9,085 nt of DNA from Oscillospiraceae bacterium. GTDB taxonomy: Bacteria > Bacillota_A > Clostridia > Oscillospirales > Ruminococcaceae. This document shows positions 1 through 8,724 of this stretch, one piece after another. Position 1 is the first letter of the stretch; the number at the start of each line of letters is the position of its first letter. The stretch is from assembly GCA_017523995.1 (NCBI GenBank), contig JAFWUX010000211.1, positions 1-9,085 of the forward strand. Reading direction: 5' to 3'. The translations under genes and the position numbers were made by a program. Under the pieces are notes generated by a model, which saw only the letters and a program-made list of their open reading frames with translations, did no database searches and had not been told where the DNA came from.

Positions 1-97
1 AGTCAGATTTTTCGTCAGATTGTATAGAAATGACGCCGCTGGGCTGGCGCCCAGCAAGGAATTTCTGTGCAAGATGACGGAAAAGATGCAAGCAGAT
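1..97 (+). repeat. Palindromic intergenic element, copy 1 (left edge may be cut off)
   Basis: The plus strand folds into one long stem. Bases 8-17 pair with 75-84 (10 bp), 21-31 pair with 61-71 (11 bp), and 38-44 pair with 49-55 (GCTGGGC, loop TGGC). Only short internal loops lie between (18-20/72-74 and 32-37/56-60). The three non-Watson-Crick positions (12/80, 23/69, 25/67) are all U.G wobbles if the plus strand is the RNA, and would be A.C mismatches on the minus strand. Blocks GATTTTT, AGAAA, GCCGC, CAAGGA-TTTCT and CAAGCAGAT recur in the same order on the minus strand of the element at 8964-9085, so this looks like a dispersed family (MITE-like or REP-like). The family is not one I can name. 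The true left border may lie outside the window. Confidence 0.7.
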
Positions 98-137
98 GCG
101 CCGCCAAGCCGTCAGGCGGGCTTTGTGCGGTGTTGCC

Positions 138-229
138 TTAACCGTTCCAGAGCTTTCCGAGCTGATCGGAATACTGCGCACGGAAATCTGCAAAGGTGCC
201 TGCATCCAGATGATCGCGGATCTGCGTCA
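138..229 (-). pseudogene. Duplicated 3' tail of tgt (gene remnant)
   Basis: Bases 142-229 match 580-667 at 87 of 88 positions. The single difference (198/636) is a synonymous GGC/GGA glycine codon. Read on the minus strand, the remnant encodes the last part of TGT, from LTQIRDHLDAG to QLGKLWNG, then stops at TAA (138-140) where the intact gene continues with QD-TGA. There is no start codon or ribosome binding site of its own, so it is not expected to make a protein. Its first bases also supply the TGA stop of the preceding membrane protein gene. It may be the original end of tgt, left behind when the unit at 230-579 was gained, or a tandem copy. The sequence alone does not settle the direction. 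Confidence 0.85.
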
Positions 230-547
230 GGTGAAATTTGCGATAAAATGCACGCATGCAATGATATGCACAACCGTCCAGAGAATTGCAAATGCAAACA
301 GCAGCCGGTTGACAGTTCTCGCCTTTTTGTCATTATTCTGCTTTGCTTCCTTTGCACAGAGAATGAAGCTGACGATCGTAATAATCCAGCAGACCGGATA
401 CAGAATAATCACCGGCGATTCGATTCCCATGGGCATAAAATAAGCAAACAGCATACCGACATCCAGATCCTCATGATACAGCAGCATCACAAGAAACGGC
501 ATGACAATATACGGCAGCAGAAATGCAAAACGTCCGAGCTTTTTCAT
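227..547 (-). CDS. Small multi-pass membrane protein, hypothetical (106 aa)
   Basis: The frame is open further upstream, but the start chosen is the ATG at 545-547. It is preceded by AGGGGGA at a suitable distance and lies 22 nt after the tgt stop; a longer reading would overlap the tgt end. The protein has hydrophobic segments at about residues 5-24, 44-65 and 81-103, possibly with a short fourth around 29-40, and a charged loop at about 66-80 (KEAKQNNDKKAR). It has no recognisable catalytic motif and I do not recognise the family. It should be cotranscribed with tgt. By eye the coding sequence is more AT-rich than tgt. It lies exactly between two copies of the tgt 3' end, and its stop codon overlaps the first bases of the downstream copy, so it looks like the cargo of a duplication or insertion. 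Integral membrane location is inferred. Confidence 0.75.
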   Translation of the reverse strand: MKKLGRFAFLLPYIVMPFLVMLLYHEDLDVGMLFAYFMPMGIESPVIILYPVCWIITIVSFILCAKEAKQNNDKKARTVNRLLFAFAILWTVVHIIACVHFIANFT

Positions 548-569
548 GTTGTCCCCCTGTTCTTTCCGA

Positions 570-1712
570 TCAGTCCTGTCCGTTCCAGAGCTTTCCGAGC
601 TGATCGGAATACTGCGCACGGAAATCTGCAAAGGTTCCTGCATCCAGATGATCGCGGATCTGCGTCATCAGATTGTTATAGAACCAGAGATTATGCTGCA
701 CGGCAAGTCTGCCTGCGAGCTGCTCCCCTGCCTTGAACAGATGCCGGATATAGGCACGCGAGAAATTGCGGCAGGTCGGGCACTGACAGCCCTCCTCGAT
801 CGGGCGCGGGTCGGTCGCAAAGCACTGATTCGTCAGGTGCATGATGCCGCGCATCGTGAACACCGTTGCGTGACGCGCATTGCGGCTCGGCATGACGCAG
901 TCGAACAGATCAACGCCGCGTGCAACGCCCTCGACAATGTTCTGCGGCGTGCCGACGCCCATCAGATAGCGGATTTTCTCCTTCGGCATATGCGGCTCAA
1001 CATGCTCGATGATGTCATACATGATCTCGGTCGGCTCACCGACGGCAAGTCCGCCGATTGCGTAGCCGTCCAGATCGAGCGCCGCGATTTCATCCATGTG
1101 GTGCTCGCGGAGATCGGCATAGGTGCAGCCCTGATTGATGCCGAACAAAAGCTGATGCGGATTGAGCGTCTCCGGCAGGCTGTTCAGGCGCGCCATCTCC
1201 TCCTTGCAGCGCTTGAGCCACCGCGTTGTGCGGTCGCAGCTCTGCGCGGCATAGCGGTAGGGCGCCGGATTCTCCACGCACTCATCGAATGCCATTGCAA
1301 TCGTTGAACCGAGATTCGACTGAATCTGCATGCTCTCCTCCGGTCCCATGAAAATGCGCTTGCCGTCGATATGGGACTGGAAGGTCACGCCCTCCTCCTT
1401 GATCTTGCGGAGCTTTGCAAGGCTGAACACCTGAAATCCGCCGGAATCCGTCAAAGTCGGGCCCTTCCAGCCGGTGAAGCCCTGCAGGCCGCCCATTGTC
1501 CGGACAATGCCGTCACCGGGGCGCACATGCAGATGATAGGTGTTGCACAGCATCACCTGACAGTTCACCGTTTCCAGATCGCGCGCGGACAGTGCGCCCT
1601 TGATTGCGCCTGCCGTCGCCACATTCATGAAACACGGCGTCTGGAAATCACCGTGGACTGTATGAAACACGCCGCGGCGTGCTGTCTGTTCCGTTTTGAG
1701 CAGTTGAAACAT
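570..1712 (-). CDS. tgt: Queuine tRNA-ribosyltransferase (tRNA-guanine transglycosylase)
   Basis: This enzyme exchanges guanine-34 in the anticodon of tRNAs with GUN anticodons for the queuosine precursor preQ1. The 380-aa length fits the bacterial family. Visible landmarks are TDSGGFQ with Asp89 (the general acid/base position), AFDEC at 141-145 (base recognition), the GGLAVGE loop at 220-226, and LFDCVMPSRNAR with the nucleophile Asp271. The zinc site is C309-x-C311-x2-C314 with H340 in QHNLWFY. All key residues are present, so the protein should be active. The ATG at 1710-1712 follows AAAGGAG, and the gene has its own promoter. No queA, yajC or secD, frequent neighbours elsewhere, is present next to it. 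The last 88 bp are repeated 438 bp downstream; the intact copy ends NGQD-TGA while the remnant ends NG-TAA, which suggests that the last two codons were acquired. A preQ1 riboswitch is unlikely because the leader is only about 30 nt. Confidence 0.96.
   Translation of the reverse strand: MFQLLKTEQTARRGVFHTVHGDFQTPCFMNVATAGAIKGALSARDLETVNCQVMLCNTYHLHVRPGDGIVRTMGGLQGFTGWKGPTLTDSGGFQVFSLAKLRKIKEEGVTFQSHIDGKRIFMGPEESMQIQSNLGSTIAMAFDECVENPAPYRYAAQSCDRTTRWLKRCKEEMARLNSLPETLNPHQLLFGINQGCTYADLREHHMDEIAALDLDGYAIGGLAVGEPTEIMYDIIEHVEPHMPKEKIRYLMGVGTPQNIVEGVARGVDLFDCVMPSRNARHATVFTMRGIMHLTNQCFATDPRPIEEGCQCPTCRNFSRAYIRHLFKAGEQLAGRLAVQHNLWFYNNLMTQIRDHLDAGTFADFRAQYSDQLGKLWNGQD
580..667 (-). repeat. 88-bp direct repeat, copy inside tgt (partner at 142-229)
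   Basis: This is the C-terminal coding end of tgt, repeated in the same orientation 438 bp away with one synonymous mismatch (636/198). Similarity stops abruptly at both borders: 579 against 141, and 668 against 230. The repeats flank the complete 106-aa membrane protein gene. Recombination between them would delete 438 bp and leave an intact tgt ending in NG. Confidence 0.92.
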
Positions 1713-2327: not shown

Positions 2328-3374
2328 TCAGGTTCGATTATTTGTGACGAGTGAATCTCCGACATCGGAGACGATACGGTATCCGGCGGATTGGATGCGC
2401 CGTTCAAGACATCCCTTGCACTGCGTCGCTTCCTCGCCGGTACAGATTTTGTTTTCGTAGAGATCATAGAGCTTGCGGACGGCTGTCGGGCTGAGATTCG
2501 GCATCATGACATTGCCGCCTGCTTTCAGCGCGAGCTCGCGTCCCTGCGGGTGCATCGAGCCGAATGCCGTTGTCGCCGGAATCAGCGCCTTCGGGAACAA
2601 CAGCCGCAGCAGCGCAATGATCTTCAGGCTGAGATGCAGGTCGCCCGAGGGCTGATCTGCAAAGGGCGTTTCGGTGTGCGTGATATACGGTCCGACGCCG
2701 ATCATCGCGGGCTGCAATTCCTGCAGAAAGCGGATATCCGCGAGCAGATTTTCCGGCGTCTGATAGGGCGAACCGATCATGAAGCCGCTGCCGACCTGAT
2801 AGCCGATCGCTTTGAGGTCACAGAGACAGCGCTTGCGGTTTTCGAGCGACATACTCTCCGGATGCAGCATGCGGTAATGCTCAGGCGAAGCGGTCTCGTG
2901 CCGCAGCAGATAGCGCCGCGCACCGGCATCGTAATAGCGCTGATAGCTCTCGCGCGGTTTCTCCCCGATCGAAAGCGTGATGCGGCAGTCCGGATGCTGC
3001 GCGGCAATCGCAGAGACCAGTTCGCAGATTTTGTCATCGGTGTAATAGGGATCTTCGCCGCCCTGCAGGACAAATGTCCGGTAGCCGAGCGCATAGCCCT
3101 CTTTGCAGCAGTCGAGAATCTGCTCATTCGTCAGGCGGTAGCGCTCTGCATGGCTGTTGCCCGCGCGGATGCCGCAGTAATAGCAGTTGTTTTTGCAGTA
3201 GTTCGTGAACTCGATCAGGCCGCGCAGAAAGACCGCATCGCCGTACCATTTGCGGCGTTCGGCATCAGCGGCGGCAAAGAGTTCCTGCTCCGGCTGCGGC
3301 TCGCGCAGGAATGTCAGGATTTCAGAATCTGTCAGATCATGTGCTGTCCGGAGTGTTTCAAGTAAATCGGACAA
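2328..3374 (-). CDS. hydE: [FeFe]-hydrogenase H-cluster maturation radical SAM enzyme HydE
   Basis: HydE is a radical S-adenosylmethionine enzyme that acts in the cytoplasm on an iron-cysteine intermediate made by HydG, to help build the diiron subcluster of [FeFe] hydrogenases. The radical SAM cluster motif is C60-x3-C64-x2-C67 within LRGLIEFTNYCKNNCYYCGIR, characteristic of HydE; LQGGEDPYY follows at about 103-111. A second cysteine set, C311-x7-C319-x2-C322, has the spacing of the accessory cluster of Thermotoga maritima HydE. The 348-aa length is normal. The start is TTG (3372-3374): it has AAAGGAG (3382-3388) 7 nt upstream, and the next in-frame ATG would remove the radical SAM motif. 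It lies fifth in an operon with a glycosidase and hypothetical genes, with no hydF or hydG nearby. BioB and PylB are the closest alternatives, but the motif and C-terminal cysteines favour HydE. Confidence 0.92.
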   Translation of the reverse strand: MSDLLETLRTAHDLTDSEILTFLREPQPEQELFAAADAERRKWYGDAVFLRGLIEFTNYCKNNCYYCGIRAGNSHAERYRLTNEQILDCCKEGYALGYRTFVLQGGEDPYYTDDKICELVSAIAAQHPDCRITLSIGEKPRESYQRYYDAGARRYLLRHETASPEHYRMLHPESMSLENRKRCLCDLKAIGYQVGSGFMIGSPYQTPENLLADIRFLQELQPAMIGVGPYITHTETPFADQPSGDLHLSLKIIALLRLLFPKALIPATTAFGSMHPQGRELALKAGGNVMMPNLSPTAVRKLYDLYENKICTGEEATQCKGCLERRIQSAGYRIVSDVGDSLVTNNRT

Positions 3375-4928: not shown

Positions 4929-7724
4929 TCAGCAGAACAGTTTTCGCAGCAGATCGGCGGAAAGCTTCTCTGCCGGTGCAAATGCATCACTATGCATATA
5001 TGCGGCGATGGCGTGGTGCAGGCGGTTCATACAGAGATCATCAGGACATTCCGTCAGCCGCGCTGTGCAGACAAACAGTCTGCCGCCGCCGACCGCCGTC
5101 TCAAAGAGCAGCCCGAGCCGGTGATTGCGCTCCACATTGTCGATCATCTGCACTGTGGGGCGGAATCCCGCCGGCGCTTCATCGAGGACGGCGCAGTCTG
5201 CATGCGTCACGATGCTGTACCACTGCGGCGTGCTGTAATCATCGCTGAACATTGCCGCCGCGACCGGATGTGTCTGATCAATGCAGAGCCCCATTGTCCC
5301 GACAGGCACCTGCCTGCCGACGGATTCCGAAATGCTGCGGAACATCGGATAGTTCCAGAAATCCGTGCAGTAGAATCCGCGGATTTTCTCCGTGATCTGT
5401 GCAGGAATCAGCAGCACTGCCTCGCCCCTCTGCAGATGCGGTTCCGCCTCCGTAAAGCTGCGGACGGTCACGAATTCCGTTGTCACCGGTTTTGCGGGCG
5501 GCAGAACCGTCAGTTCCCATGTGTTGCGGATGCCGGATTCCGGCAGTTCAAAGACAATCTTTGCATTGCCCATGCATGTTTCAGGGATGCGGAATCCGCC
5601 GCCGCCGAGGTCGAGCAATCCTGCGCCGGATGCCGGAATCTCGCCGTTTGTTTCCGCGAGCAGTCTGTCCCCGACGGTGAATGTCACGCGGAACGGCTGC
5701 GCGGGAATCTCCGGACGGCTGCTGCGGACTGCATAGCGGCATTCAAACACGCTGCCGGATTCCTGCACATAGGAATCAAAGATCACAAGCGGCACCAGAT
5801 CGCCGCAGAACGCGCGCCACGTTTCCGGCTCGATCAGCCCCTTGTTCTCTAAAAATGCGTTCAGCATCCCGACGAGCGCCGTGCCCTGTCCCGGAAAATC
5901 CTGCAGATCGAGCAGCTGAAATCCCGCGATCTGCGGGGTGCGCATCACGGCTTCGAGCTCGGATTTGTAGCAGTCTCGCGCGAGCTTTCCCGAGCACCGG
6001 AAGAAATCCGCCGCCTGTTCGCCCATGCCAGCCTGTTCCAGCCGCTCACGGAACACCTCCAGATTGCGCGGTGCCAGCGGGCCGGTGTACTTCGGAAGCT
6101 CCCTGTAATCGGGATAGATGCCGTACTGCCCGATCTCATGCGTGATGACGGGCTTTGTCGGGCGGAACGGCTGCTTTGCCGCCGCTTTGACATGTGCAAC
6201 GCCGGTGCCGAACTGGATCGCCAGATCGGTTTCGGCGGAATCGGTCTCTGTCTCAGCGCAAAGGAACGCTTCGCTGTAATCCCAGTTTGCAGAGGGTGCA
6301 GCCGTCTGGATTCTGCCGAGCGGCGCATCGCAATCCGCATAGGAGCCGCGCAGCAGCCGGTGCTTTCCCGTCCGGACACCGACCCAGAAATCCTCCTGCG
6401 GCAGTTCCTGCGGCGTAAACTGGAAATTGTTGCTGCCCTGTGTATAGAGCGGCCGCGGATCATGTGCGCGCAGAAGATCGAGAATCTCGCCGAGCCGCTC
6501 CGCGCTGCCCCAGAGCTCATTACCGAGCGAAAGCATCACGAAGGAAGGGTGATTGCCGAAGGCATCGCAGATGCGCCTGCCCTCGCGGATCAGATATGCC
6601 TGCCCGACGGCATCATATTTTTCGCCGCCCTCTGCATCGACCGTGCCCCAGAACGGGAGCTCCGGCTCCAGCAGCATGCCGGTCAGATCGGCAGCGGCAA
6701 AGGCAGCCTCCGGCGGGCAGCAGGTGTGAAACCGAATGTGGTTGATGCCCCATGTCTGCATGCACCGAAAATAGCGCAGCCACATGTCAAGTCCGGTCGG
6801 GGCGGCACCCGTCAGCGGAAAGACCATTGCGTCATGTCTGCCGCGGAGCAGAACCGGCTTGCCGTTCAGTTCAAAATGATCGCCGCAGGCTTTGAAATCG
6901 CGCAGACCGAATTCCGCAGATGCGGTCTCGCCCTGCGGCAGCTCAAAACACAGCGCCAGCCCGACCGGAGACTGTTCACTCCACTGCGGCGTATCCGGCG
7001 GCAGCAGAATCTCTGCGGAAAATGCGCCCGAAGCATCCGGCGCAAGCAGCACGCCTTTCGGCACGGTAAAATGCCAGCCGCCGCACTGCGGATACGGATT
7101 CTGCTGAACCGTGACCGCTGCAATCTGCGGCGCGGGCGGGTTCAGTCTGCCGGTGATGCGGATGCGGTGCGCAGCTGCATTCGGATAAACCTTCAGCTCC
7201 GAGAGCGTTGTGCTGCCGGAGAAGCGCAGCTCCATTCTGCCCGTCACGCCGATCCAGTTTGTCTGCGTATCGGGCGAGGTCATGTGTCCGCCGGGAACGG
7301 GATATCCGGTGTTCCGGATGCAGAGCACAATCTCGGTTTCCGGCGTCAGCAGGCCGGAAATATCATATTCATGCGGTGTGCAGAGACTCTCGTCGCTGCC
7401 CGCATACTGCCCGTTGACCCAGAGCTGCGTCATGCGCGTGCGTTCGAGATACAGCGTGCAGTGCGGCGCGTTCAGATCCGCCTCTGAAATGTGCAGGATC
7501 CTGCGCAGCCAGAGCTGTCCGCGGAACGGATAGCGCTCTGTCAGAAAGCCGGTCTCGCGCGCCGGATTCTCCGCGCCGAGCTTCTGCTGCGCGGTGGTGC
7601 CGGGCAGCGTCATCGTCAGCGGATATGCTGCCGGCGGTTCGCTGTATGCACAGGGCTCGGCATCCATCAGAAGCTGCCAGTTCCCCCATAATGGATTGCT
7701 CCCGTCAAATCGGATTTCCGTCAT
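4929..7724 (-). CDS. Glycoside hydrolase family 2 protein (beta-glycosidase, substrate unknown)
   Basis: This is a 931-aa retaining glycosidase with the GH2 layout: an N-terminal jelly-roll sugar-binding domain (about 10-170), an immunoglobulin-like domain (about 175-280), a TIM barrel from about 283 (FELNGKPVLLRGRH), and additional C-terminal beta domains (about 640-931). The acid/base is Glu403 in LGNELWG, and the likely nucleophile is Glu530 in VITHEIGQYG. GFQLLDLQDFPGQGTALVG (601-619) marks a GH2 subgroup distinct from LacZ. There is no signal peptide, so it probably acts in the cytoplasm on imported oligosaccharides. The ATG at 7722-7724 follows AAAGGAG. It is the first gene of a six-gene operon, but no sugar transporter or sugar-specific regulator is visible in the window, so the substrate cannot be read from context. 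Confidence 0.9.
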   Translation of the reverse strand: MTEIRFDGSNPLWGNWQLLMDAEPCAYSEPPAAYPLTMTLPGTTAQQKLGAENPARETGFLTERYPFRGQLWLRRILHISEADLNAPHCTLYLERTRMTQLWVNGQYAGSDESLCTPHEYDISGLLTPETEIVLCIRNTGYPVPGGHMTSPDTQTNWIGVTGRMELRFSGSTTLSELKVYPNAAAHRIRITGRLNPPAPQIAAVTVQQNPYPQCGGWHFTVPKGVLLAPDASGAFSAEILLPPDTPQWSEQSPVGLALCFELPQGETASAEFGLRDFKACGDHFELNGKPVLLRGRHDAMVFPLTGAAPTGLDMWLRYFRCMQTWGINHIRFHTCCPPEAAFAAADLTGMLLEPELPFWGTVDAEGGEKYDAVGQAYLIREGRRICDAFGNHPSFVMLSLGNELWGSAERLGEILDLLRAHDPRPLYTQGSNNFQFTPQELPQEDFWVGVRTGKHRLLRGSYADCDAPLGRIQTAAPSANWDYSEAFLCAETETDSAETDLAIQFGTGVAHVKAAAKQPFRPTKPVITHEIGQYGIYPDYRELPKYTGPLAPRNLEVFRERLEQAGMGEQAADFFRCSGKLARDCYKSELEAVMRTPQIAGFQLLDLQDFPGQGTALVGMLNAFLENKGLIEPETWRAFCGDLVPLVIFDSYVQESGSVFECRYAVRSSRPEIPAQPFRVTFTVGDRLLAETNGEIPASGAGLLDLGGGGFRIPETCMGNAKIVFELPESGIRNTWELTVLPPAKPVTTEFVTVRSFTEAEPHLQRGEAVLLIPAQITEKIRGFYCTDFWNYPMFRSISESVGRQVPVGTMGLCIDQTHPVAAAMFSDDYSTPQWYSIVTHADCAVLDEAPAGFRPTVQMIDNVERNHRLGLLFETAVGGGRLFVCTARLTECPDDLCMNRLHHAIAAYMHSDAFAPAEKLSADLLRKLFC

Positions 7725-8031: not shown

Positions 8032-8364
8032 GTGAACAAGGAAGAAATCCTCGCAAAATCGAGACAGGAAAACAAGGGCGGCGATCTTGCCGCACAGGCG
8101 GAAAAGGAGCAGAACTGGAATGCCGCATTTCTGATCGGCGGAATCTGGGTTCTTATCGTTTACGTCCTGCAAATGATGACGGATCATGACGAGCAGGCAT
8201 GGGGCACCATGTCGATCATGTTCTGGATGCTGTTCGGAAACGCGCTGCGTCCGGCAATCCGCGCATGCAAAACGGGCGGCGGCATCGAGATTGTCCCGAT
8301 GGTGCTGTTCCTGCTGCTTGCAATTTTGTGGTCAGTCAGATATATTCTGTATCTGCTCGGTTAA
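8032..8364 (+). CDS. Small membrane protein, DUF6442-like, first paralogue (110 aa)
   Basis: The start codon is GTG (8032-8034), 6 nt after AAGGAGG. The alignment of its first residues with the second paralogue, which starts with ATG, fixes this start. The N-terminus MNKEEILAKSRQENKGGDL is the hallmark of a small Firmicute membrane family that I recall as DUF6442; the name is from memory. After a cytoplasmic, charged stretch of about 28 residues come hydrophobic segments at about 30-49, 57-73 and 86-108. There are no catalytic residues, and the molecular function of the family is unknown to me. The gene follows a strong, operator-controlled promoter and is followed by a paralogue and an XRE regulator, a typical arrangement for this family. 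The stop TAA overlaps the ribosome binding site of the next gene. Confidence 0.87.
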   Translation: MNKEEILAKSRQENKGGDLAAQAEKEQNWNAAFLIGGIWVLIVYVLQMMTDHDEQAWGTMSIMFWMLFGNALRPAIRACKTGGGIEIVPMVLFLLLAILWSVRYILYLLG

Positions 8365-8376
8365 GGAGATGTCATA

Positions 8377-8724
8377 ATGAACAAGGAAGAAATCCTCGCA
8401 AAATCGAGAAAAGAAAACAAGGGCGCTGATCTTGTCGCGCTCGAAGCCGACTCCCATTCCGGCAAATTCGCAGGTGCCGCGGCAATTCTGCTCGGCGCAA
8501 TCCTCAACGGAATCGCAATGATTCGCTATAACAGAGCGCTGCCGGAATTCTTGGCAATCTTCTTCTGCTATCAGGCAGCACAGGGGCTTGCACGCGGTCT
8601 CCTTCTGCTGGTGGGCGGCAGAAAAGCCGCGGGACTGGGCTGGCTCGCATACGGATTTGTGATGCTTGCCGCGACAGTTCTCGCCGTGCGTCAGTCAATG
8701 CGCCTCTGGACAGCGGGGGCATAA
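8377..8724 (+). CDS. Small membrane protein, DUF6442-like, second paralogue (115 aa)
   Basis: The ATG at 8377-8379 follows AAGGAG, which overlaps the stop of the first paralogue (TAAGGAG). The first 19 residues match those of the first paralogue except Q12K and G17A, and 32 consecutive bases (8033-8064 and 8378-8409) are identical. Beyond about residue 20 the two proteins hardly resemble each other. Hydrophobic segments lie at about 30-48, 56-79 and 84-104, with a small GGRK turn between the last two. The protein therefore has the same topology as its neighbour, with a conserved cytoplasmic head and a different membrane part. The conserved head may be the part that meets a shared partner; that is inference. 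The stop is 1 nt before the XRE start codon. Confidence 0.85.
   Translation: MNKEEILAKSRKENKGADLVALEADSHSGKFAGAAAILLGAILNGIAMIRYNRALPEFLAIFFCYQAAQGLARGLLLLVGGRKAAGLGWLAYGFVMLAATVLAVRQSMRLWTAGA

What the first reader, a model, noticed from the sequence alone, without database searches (positions are those of the whole stretch)
138..667. 88-bp duplication of the tgt 3' end flanks a small membrane gene: a 438-bp insertable or excisable unit
Bases 142-229 and 580-667 are identical except for one synonymous change. The downstream copy ends tgt with NG-TAA, the intact one with NGQD-TGA. The complete 106-aa membrane gene lies exactly between the copies, and its stop codon overlaps the start of the remnant. 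Recombination between the repeats would remove the gene and leave a complete tgt. This resembles insertion into the 3' end of a housekeeping gene with regeneration of the gene end, but without any visible integrase. The gene could be a recent gain or a cargo that varies between strains.
Basis: partly seen in the sequence, partly recalled or inferred. Interest (0 to 1): 0.72.

Follow-up and report, generated by a model that had tools for sequence, protein, structure and literature searches.

The report
Second gene variant inserted beside tgt
A gut or rumen Ruminococcus-type bacterium seems to carry a foreign version of a small membrane-protein gene, inserted behind the housekeeping gene tgt together with a spare 88-base copy of the tgt end; this looks like an untidy recombination product in a gene that relatives often swap, not a new kind of mobile element.

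Summary
The repeat is real: 142-229 and 580-667 differ at one of 88 bases. The interpretation needs changing. The four closest held genomes each have one tgt end (NG-TTAA) followed directly by one full-length homologue (M1) of the small membrane gene, so the gene family is ancestral here, not a recent gain. The window's gene is another allele (M2): 68-77% DNA identity to M1 of G011/G012 in four parts of the gene; dS 0.79 against 0.21 for tgt (versus G012). It has its own leader and NGQD tgt tail and lacks the last three codons. The downstream remnant keeps the relatives' NG-TTAA end. The palindrome (1-137) is part of a MITE-like repeat with 4-bp target duplications, sitting at that TTAA. Best reading: incoming tgt-end+M2 DNA joined by homology in tgt on one side and illegitimately on the other, leaving the native tgt end, and (predicted) M1, downstream. 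Nothing suggests a site-specific element: none of 109 tested tgt loci has a comparable second copy. M alleles are mosaic across lineages. The window ends inside the MITE, so M1 is predicted, not seen.

The parts
570..1712 (-). tgt, intact, 380 aa, ends NGQD-TGA
   Evidence: Pfam TGT 513 bits; NCBIfam TIGR00430 475 bits against a cut-off of 307
580..667 (-). T: 88-bp end of the intact tgt (upstream copy)
   Evidence: 88/88 identical to G012
548..579 (-). allele-2 leader: codons QD, TGA, and an AGGGGG ribosome-binding-site-like stretch at 553-558
   Evidence: sequence; only 34-38% like the leader of the four relatives
227..547 (-). M2: 106-aa membrane protein gene, allele 2, lacking its last three codons; stop supplied by T'
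   Evidence: model with helices 4-24, 28-37, 46-70, 74-103, mean pLDDT 76.6
142..229 (-). T': remnant copy of the tgt end, read as the native allele-1 end
   Evidence: 87/88 to T; continues into TTAA like tgt of G001, G002, G011, G012
138..141 (.). TTAA: stop region of the native tgt end and presumed MITE target site (one side seen)
   Evidence: TTAA at the same place in 4 of 4 relatives; TTAA is among the 4-bp duplications of this element
1..137 (.). 137 nt of a MITE-like palindromic element, 172 nt in its commonest form, cut by the window start
   Evidence: up to 99-100% identical copies elsewhere; plus strand folds at z -6.2

Best explanation
A recombination scar that stacks two alleles of one locus. 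The native locus was tgt with the NG-TTAA end followed by allele 1 of a small membrane gene (M1), as in the relatives. DNA from a strain with the other allele (NGQD tail, leader 2, M2) entered. One end recombined by homology inside tgt, so tgt stayed intact and took the NGQD tail. The other end, in the last codons of M2, was joined without visible homology to the recipient's tgt, 88 bp before its end. An end-joined circle of donor DNA integrating by one crossover within the 88 bp gives the same product. The native tgt end became the remnant T', which also gives M2 its stop codon, and M1 was pushed downstream. A MITE inserted at the TTAA of T', before or after. Shown: two alleles, the allele-1 end on T', the missing M2 tail, the MITE and its kind of target site. 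Inferred: the order of events, the donor, and M1 beyond the window. Expected consequence (inference): M2 is the tgt-proximal copy, probably read from the tgt transcript; M1, if present, is separated from tgt by the MITE.
For: T' ends NG-TTAA as in 4 of 4 closest genomes with M, while the window's own tgt ends NGQD. Both tails occur among the 16 closest tgt clusters: 7 NGQD, 1 SGQE, 8 NG (best 120 of 7998 listed). Identity to G012 falls from 88/88 in T to 12/32 in the leader and 68-77% in M; dS 0.21 in tgt, 0.79 in M. M2 lacks three codons exactly at the join. Each relative has one (nearly) full T copy and one M. G012 has the same upstream gene order.
Against: M1 beyond the MITE is not seen, because the window ends there. 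No donor with NGQD-M2 was read as DNA: the allele-2 pattern was found in 1 of 61 genomes, and that hit is a chance match at the start of another gene. The right-hand join could be judged only against relatives' M, not the real donor. The frequency of such events is very low where measured (3x10^-10 per recipient in E. coli conjugation, abstract of PMC3240628).
Confidence: 0.6

Rival explanations
1. Two steps: a strain with allele 1 first made an ordinary tandem duplication of [88 bp of tgt end + M1]; later the upstream leader and M1 were replaced by M2 through normal homologous recombination.
For: Allele exchange at M is evidently common: mosaic M genes and dS of 0.018-0.037 in the first 240 bp of M between lineages whose tgt dS is 0.19-0.53. 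M2 shares a near-identical stretch at its 3' end with G011, which could serve as the right-hand crossover.
Against: Needs two events instead of one; no duplication without replacement was seen in 109 tested loci.
Confidence: 0.2
2. Assembly artefact: T or T' routes two strains of a metagenome together, so that T' is wrongly continued into the MITE, or the duplication itself is false.
For: The window starts inside a dispersed repeat, as contigs do, and no genome is held for it. An 88-bp repeat shared by two strains is a classic branching point.
Against: The M2-T' join shares no long word between its two sides, so a real molecule (or a chimeric read) is needed for it; T' carries its own base at 198; T' to TTAA to MITE is a coherent insertion site.
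Confidence: 0.12
3. A site-specific mobile cassette that inserts at the tgt 3' end and rebuilds it, with a recombinase elsewhere in the genome.
For: Insertion at the 3' end of a housekeeping gene; direct repeats on both sides; a complete tgt is kept.
Against: No comparable second tgt end in 109 tested loci. The right junction truncates M2. No T' behind M1 in the four relatives. The M profile and the tgt-end pattern found nothing in viral contigs.
Confidence: 0.05

Closest known systems
Homology-facilitated illegitimate recombination, or circularised DNA integrating by a single crossover (PMC3240628; abstract and outline seen)
   Same: One homologous and one illegitimate junction, or the equivalent single-crossover product; a stretch of the anchor gene is duplicated around the insert.
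   Different: Here inferred from a natural sequence; donor and transfer route unknown.
Stacking of orphan immunity genes behind T6SS effector genes in Vibrio cholerae (PMC5361080; 12 of 14 passages found were read)
   Same: A conserved upstream gene as anchor, an incoming variable module, the old gene end and old module shifted downstream; the authors propose the same recombination mechanism.
   Different: No effector or toxin seen here; anchor is tgt; only one remnant; the function of M is unknown and M1 downstream is only predicted.
Bacterial MITEs (several MITE papers seen as search listing only)
   Same: Short palindromic element without a gene, terminal inverted repeats, 4-bp target duplications, several copies per genome.
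   Different: Parent transposon not identified; no Rfam match; a library search for the MITE term with Ruminococcus listed one paper, on another subject by its title.

Membership tests
HFIR-type insertion product | one junction inside a homologous anchor | tested here: met
   T and T' are 87/88 identical and 88/88 and 87/88 to G012 tgt
HFIR-type insertion product | other junction without or with very short homology | tested here: inconclusive
   no shared base seen at the join when relatives' M stands in for the donor; real donor unknown
HFIR-type insertion product | insert foreign to the recipient lineage | tested here: met
   dS of M 0.79 against 0.21 in tgt versus G012; leader 12/32
site-specific integrative element at a gene 3' end | recombinase gene in the element | tested here: not met
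   the 438-bp unit encodes only M2 besides tgt fragments
site-specific integrative element at a gene 3' end | recurrent insertion at the same site in relatives | tested here: not met
   0 of 109 tested tgt loci (114 given; some genomes represented twice or more) have a comparable second tgt end
site-specific integrative element at a gene 3' end | excised circular form | not testable with these tools
   needs reads or PCR
MITE | terminal inverted repeats | tested here: met
   GGCAACACCGC / GCGGTATTGCC in held copies; in the window only one end lies inside
MITE | target-site duplication | tested here: met
   11 of 23 elements with both flanks have a perfect 4-bp duplication, 12 do not (22 of 44 strand-rows; 1000 shuffles mean 3.14, maximum 9); for the window copy only one side is seen
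MITE | parent transposon in trans | tested here: inconclusive
   terminal-repeat pattern in 7 genomes gave no pair at transposon distance by eye; no transposase was searched for
effector-immunity stacking array | cognate toxin or immunity function | tested here: inconclusive
   M has no PADLOC or NCBIfam match and only sub-threshold Pfam matches; no effector gene recognised in the scanned window proteins
effector-immunity stacking array | older allele kept downstream | not testable with these tools
   window ends inside the MITE

The most novel reading that the evidence does not exclude
The tgt 3' end in this Ruminococcus lineage is a stacking site for a polymorphic membrane gene under selection for diversity (for example an immunity or phage-entry protein): each incoming allele brings a piece of tgt, becomes the tgt-proximal copy and leaves the older allele archived behind it, without any integrase.
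Probability: 0.12. Interest if true: 0.6.

Novelty: new member of a known kind. Interest (0 to 1): 0.33.

Why it matters
It gives a natural, sequence-level picture of how a second allele can be stacked behind a housekeeping gene in an uncultured gut commensal without dedicated recombination enzymes, and it points to an unnamed small membrane-protein family whose alleles cross lineages faster than the gene next to them. If M proved to be an immunity or receptor protein, this would be a simple model locus for allele stacking. As it stands it is a plausible and rather ordinary recombination scar.

Tried and rejected
Recent gain of the gene: rejected, since four relatives carry it at the same place. 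Site-specific element: not supported. Phage or plasmid vehicle: a protein-profile scan and two exact DNA patterns in viral contigs gave no confirmed match; distant DNA searches with 1-2000 (phages) and 1-700 (plasmids) matched only tgt-like stretches or the MITE. Simple self-duplication as the only step: rejected, because T and T' have different allele ends; kept as the first step of a two-step rival. Function of M: Pfam sub-threshold only, NCBIfam and PADLOC nothing; model of moderate confidence (mean pLDDT 76.6); 0 of 26 listed PDB matches at E 0.001 or better. Rfam: nothing at E 1. tgt as a published island site: the one listed paper mentions a casposon-encoded tRNA-ribosyltransferase domain, not integration into tgt. 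Allele-2 junction in held genomes: one two-mismatch hit in 61 genomes, not at tgt.

Full report
Observation. The window holds an 88-nt direct repeat, 142-229 and 580-667, spacing 438, with one difference. On the minus strand the order is: tgt (570-1712), whose last shared 88 bp are T; a 32-nt leader that starts with the codons QD and TGA; a 106-aa membrane ORF (M2, 227-547); the second copy T'; TTAA (138-141); and a palindromic stretch that runs off the window at base 1.

Relatives. No genome is held for the window. A tgt scan of genome contigs gave 80 loci (the best of at least 595) of Ruminococcus and other Oscillospiraceae/Clostridia, best identity 94%. A DNA search of 100 relatives of G001 with 138-760 found a match in 44, but only four extend well into the membrane gene: G011 and G012 (81%), G001 and G002 (77%). 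G012 keeps the upstream gene order (the 1811 gene 79%, HydE 98.6%, the 3393 gene 72%, the 3839 gene 74%) and its tgt protein is 98.9% identical. In all four, tgt ends AACGG-TTAA (NG stop) and the start codon of one 112-aa homologue of the membrane gene follows 21 bases after the stop. Each has one (nearly) full T copy; G001 and G002 have one further match each of only 30 and 21 bp elsewhere. Each has one M gene at E 1e-5, at a laxer limit, lists one further weak match in G011 (E 0.008). A profile found M in these 4 of 199 relatives of G011; of 297 genomes drawn from the family only G011 had a match to P0006. The large protein set has 48 clusters at E 0.01. M is thus a narrow family that sits next to tgt in this group before the event in the window.

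Two alleles. Against G012 the window is 88/88 identical in T, 12/32 in the leader, and 68, 68, 77 and 76% in four parts of M. The four relatives are 94-100% identical to each other in the leader and in the first three parts of M, and 59-60% in the last part when G011/G012 are compared with G001/G002. dS of the window versus G012 is 0.21 in tgt and 0.79 in M. Among the relatives the reverse holds: tgt dS is 0.19-0.53, but dS in the first 240 bp of M is 0.018-0.037, and then 0.94-1.10 in the last 75 bp between the two pairs of genomes (simple counting method, short stretches). So M alleles move between lineages in pieces; the 20 homologues look mosaic by eye as well (no formal test). The tgt tail is dimorphic too: of the 16 closest clusters (P0021-P0036) 7 end NGQD, 1 SGQE and 8 NG.

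What T' is. T' runs into TTAA like tgt of the four relatives and unlike the window's own intact tgt. It is best read as the native allele-1 end, with T, leader and M2 as the incomer. M2 lacks its last three codons at the join, and T' supplies the stop. With relatives' M standing in for the donor, no base is shared at the join, so it looks illegitimate. Of 114 tgt loci given (several genomes appear more than once), 109 could be tested for a second copy of their own tgt end downstream; four gave hits of 18, 34, 21 and 19 bp, nothing like 88 bp.

The palindromic element. Bases 1-137 belong to a dispersed repeat with terminal inverted repeats (GGCAACACCGC and GCGGTATTGCC). It matched in 6 of 10 genomes and 14 of 31 (the sets overlap). 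In held loci 24 elements were recognised with both ends, 12 of them 172 nt long. Of 23 with both flanks, 11 have a perfect 4-bp direct duplication (TTAA, TAAA, TCAA, CTTA, CTTG) and 12 do not; counted on both strands 22 of 44 rows, against a mean of 3.14 and a maximum of 9 in 1000 shuffles. This is MITE-like. In the window it follows TTAA, which the four relatives have at the same place without the element. The plus strand folds far better than shuffles (z -6.2; minus strand -2.95). Its parent transposon was not identified.

Mechanism. One event explains T-M2-T': homology on the tgt side and illegitimate joining on the M side, or an end-joined circle that integrates by one crossover in T. Both routes are named in the abstract of PMC3240628, which also says how rare they are in E. 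coli. The same idea was proposed for stacked immunity genes in Vibrio (PMC5361080; passages read). A two-step rival, tandem duplication and later allele replacement, is not excluded. Both forecast an allele-1 leader and M1 beyond the MITE, where the window ends.

Against. M1 beyond the MITE is unseen; no NGQD-M2 donor was read as DNA; the allele-2 junction was absent from 61 genomes apart from one chance hit; strain mixing in an assembly could have altered what follows T'. The function of M is open, so immunity or phage entry is speculation.

Verdict. A real feature, re-interpreted: an allele-stacking recombination scar plus a MITE; a new member of a known kind, of modest interest.

Noticed in passing
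8032-8364 and 8377-8724 (+): Two tandem DUF6442 genes share a 61-nt start at 92% (Pfam) but have different bodies; the matching locus of G001 (L168) has one DUF6442 gene before the same HTH gene. This is a second place in the window where a unit with a repeated gene end seems to have been added.
   Followed up: partly
1-137: Sequences 75-86% like this element also occur in contigs labelled as human faecal phage and, for 61-141, in two Subdoligranulum records of the plasmid collection; six of the phage-labelled records with the highest scores hold tgt-like DNA instead.
   Followed up: no
4929-7724 (-): A 931-aa GH2-type protein matches the exo-beta-1,4-galactosidase model NF049890 at 508 bits, far under its cut-off of 1500.
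   Followed up: no
2328-3374 (-): HydE, [FeFe] hydrogenase maturase (TIGR03956, 527 bits), upstream of tgt; the same order is kept in G012.
   Followed up: partly
227-547 (-): Protein clusters P0001 (94% identical) and P0010 also lack the usual C-terminal residues; whether this is another such junction or a contig end could not be seen.
   Followed up: no
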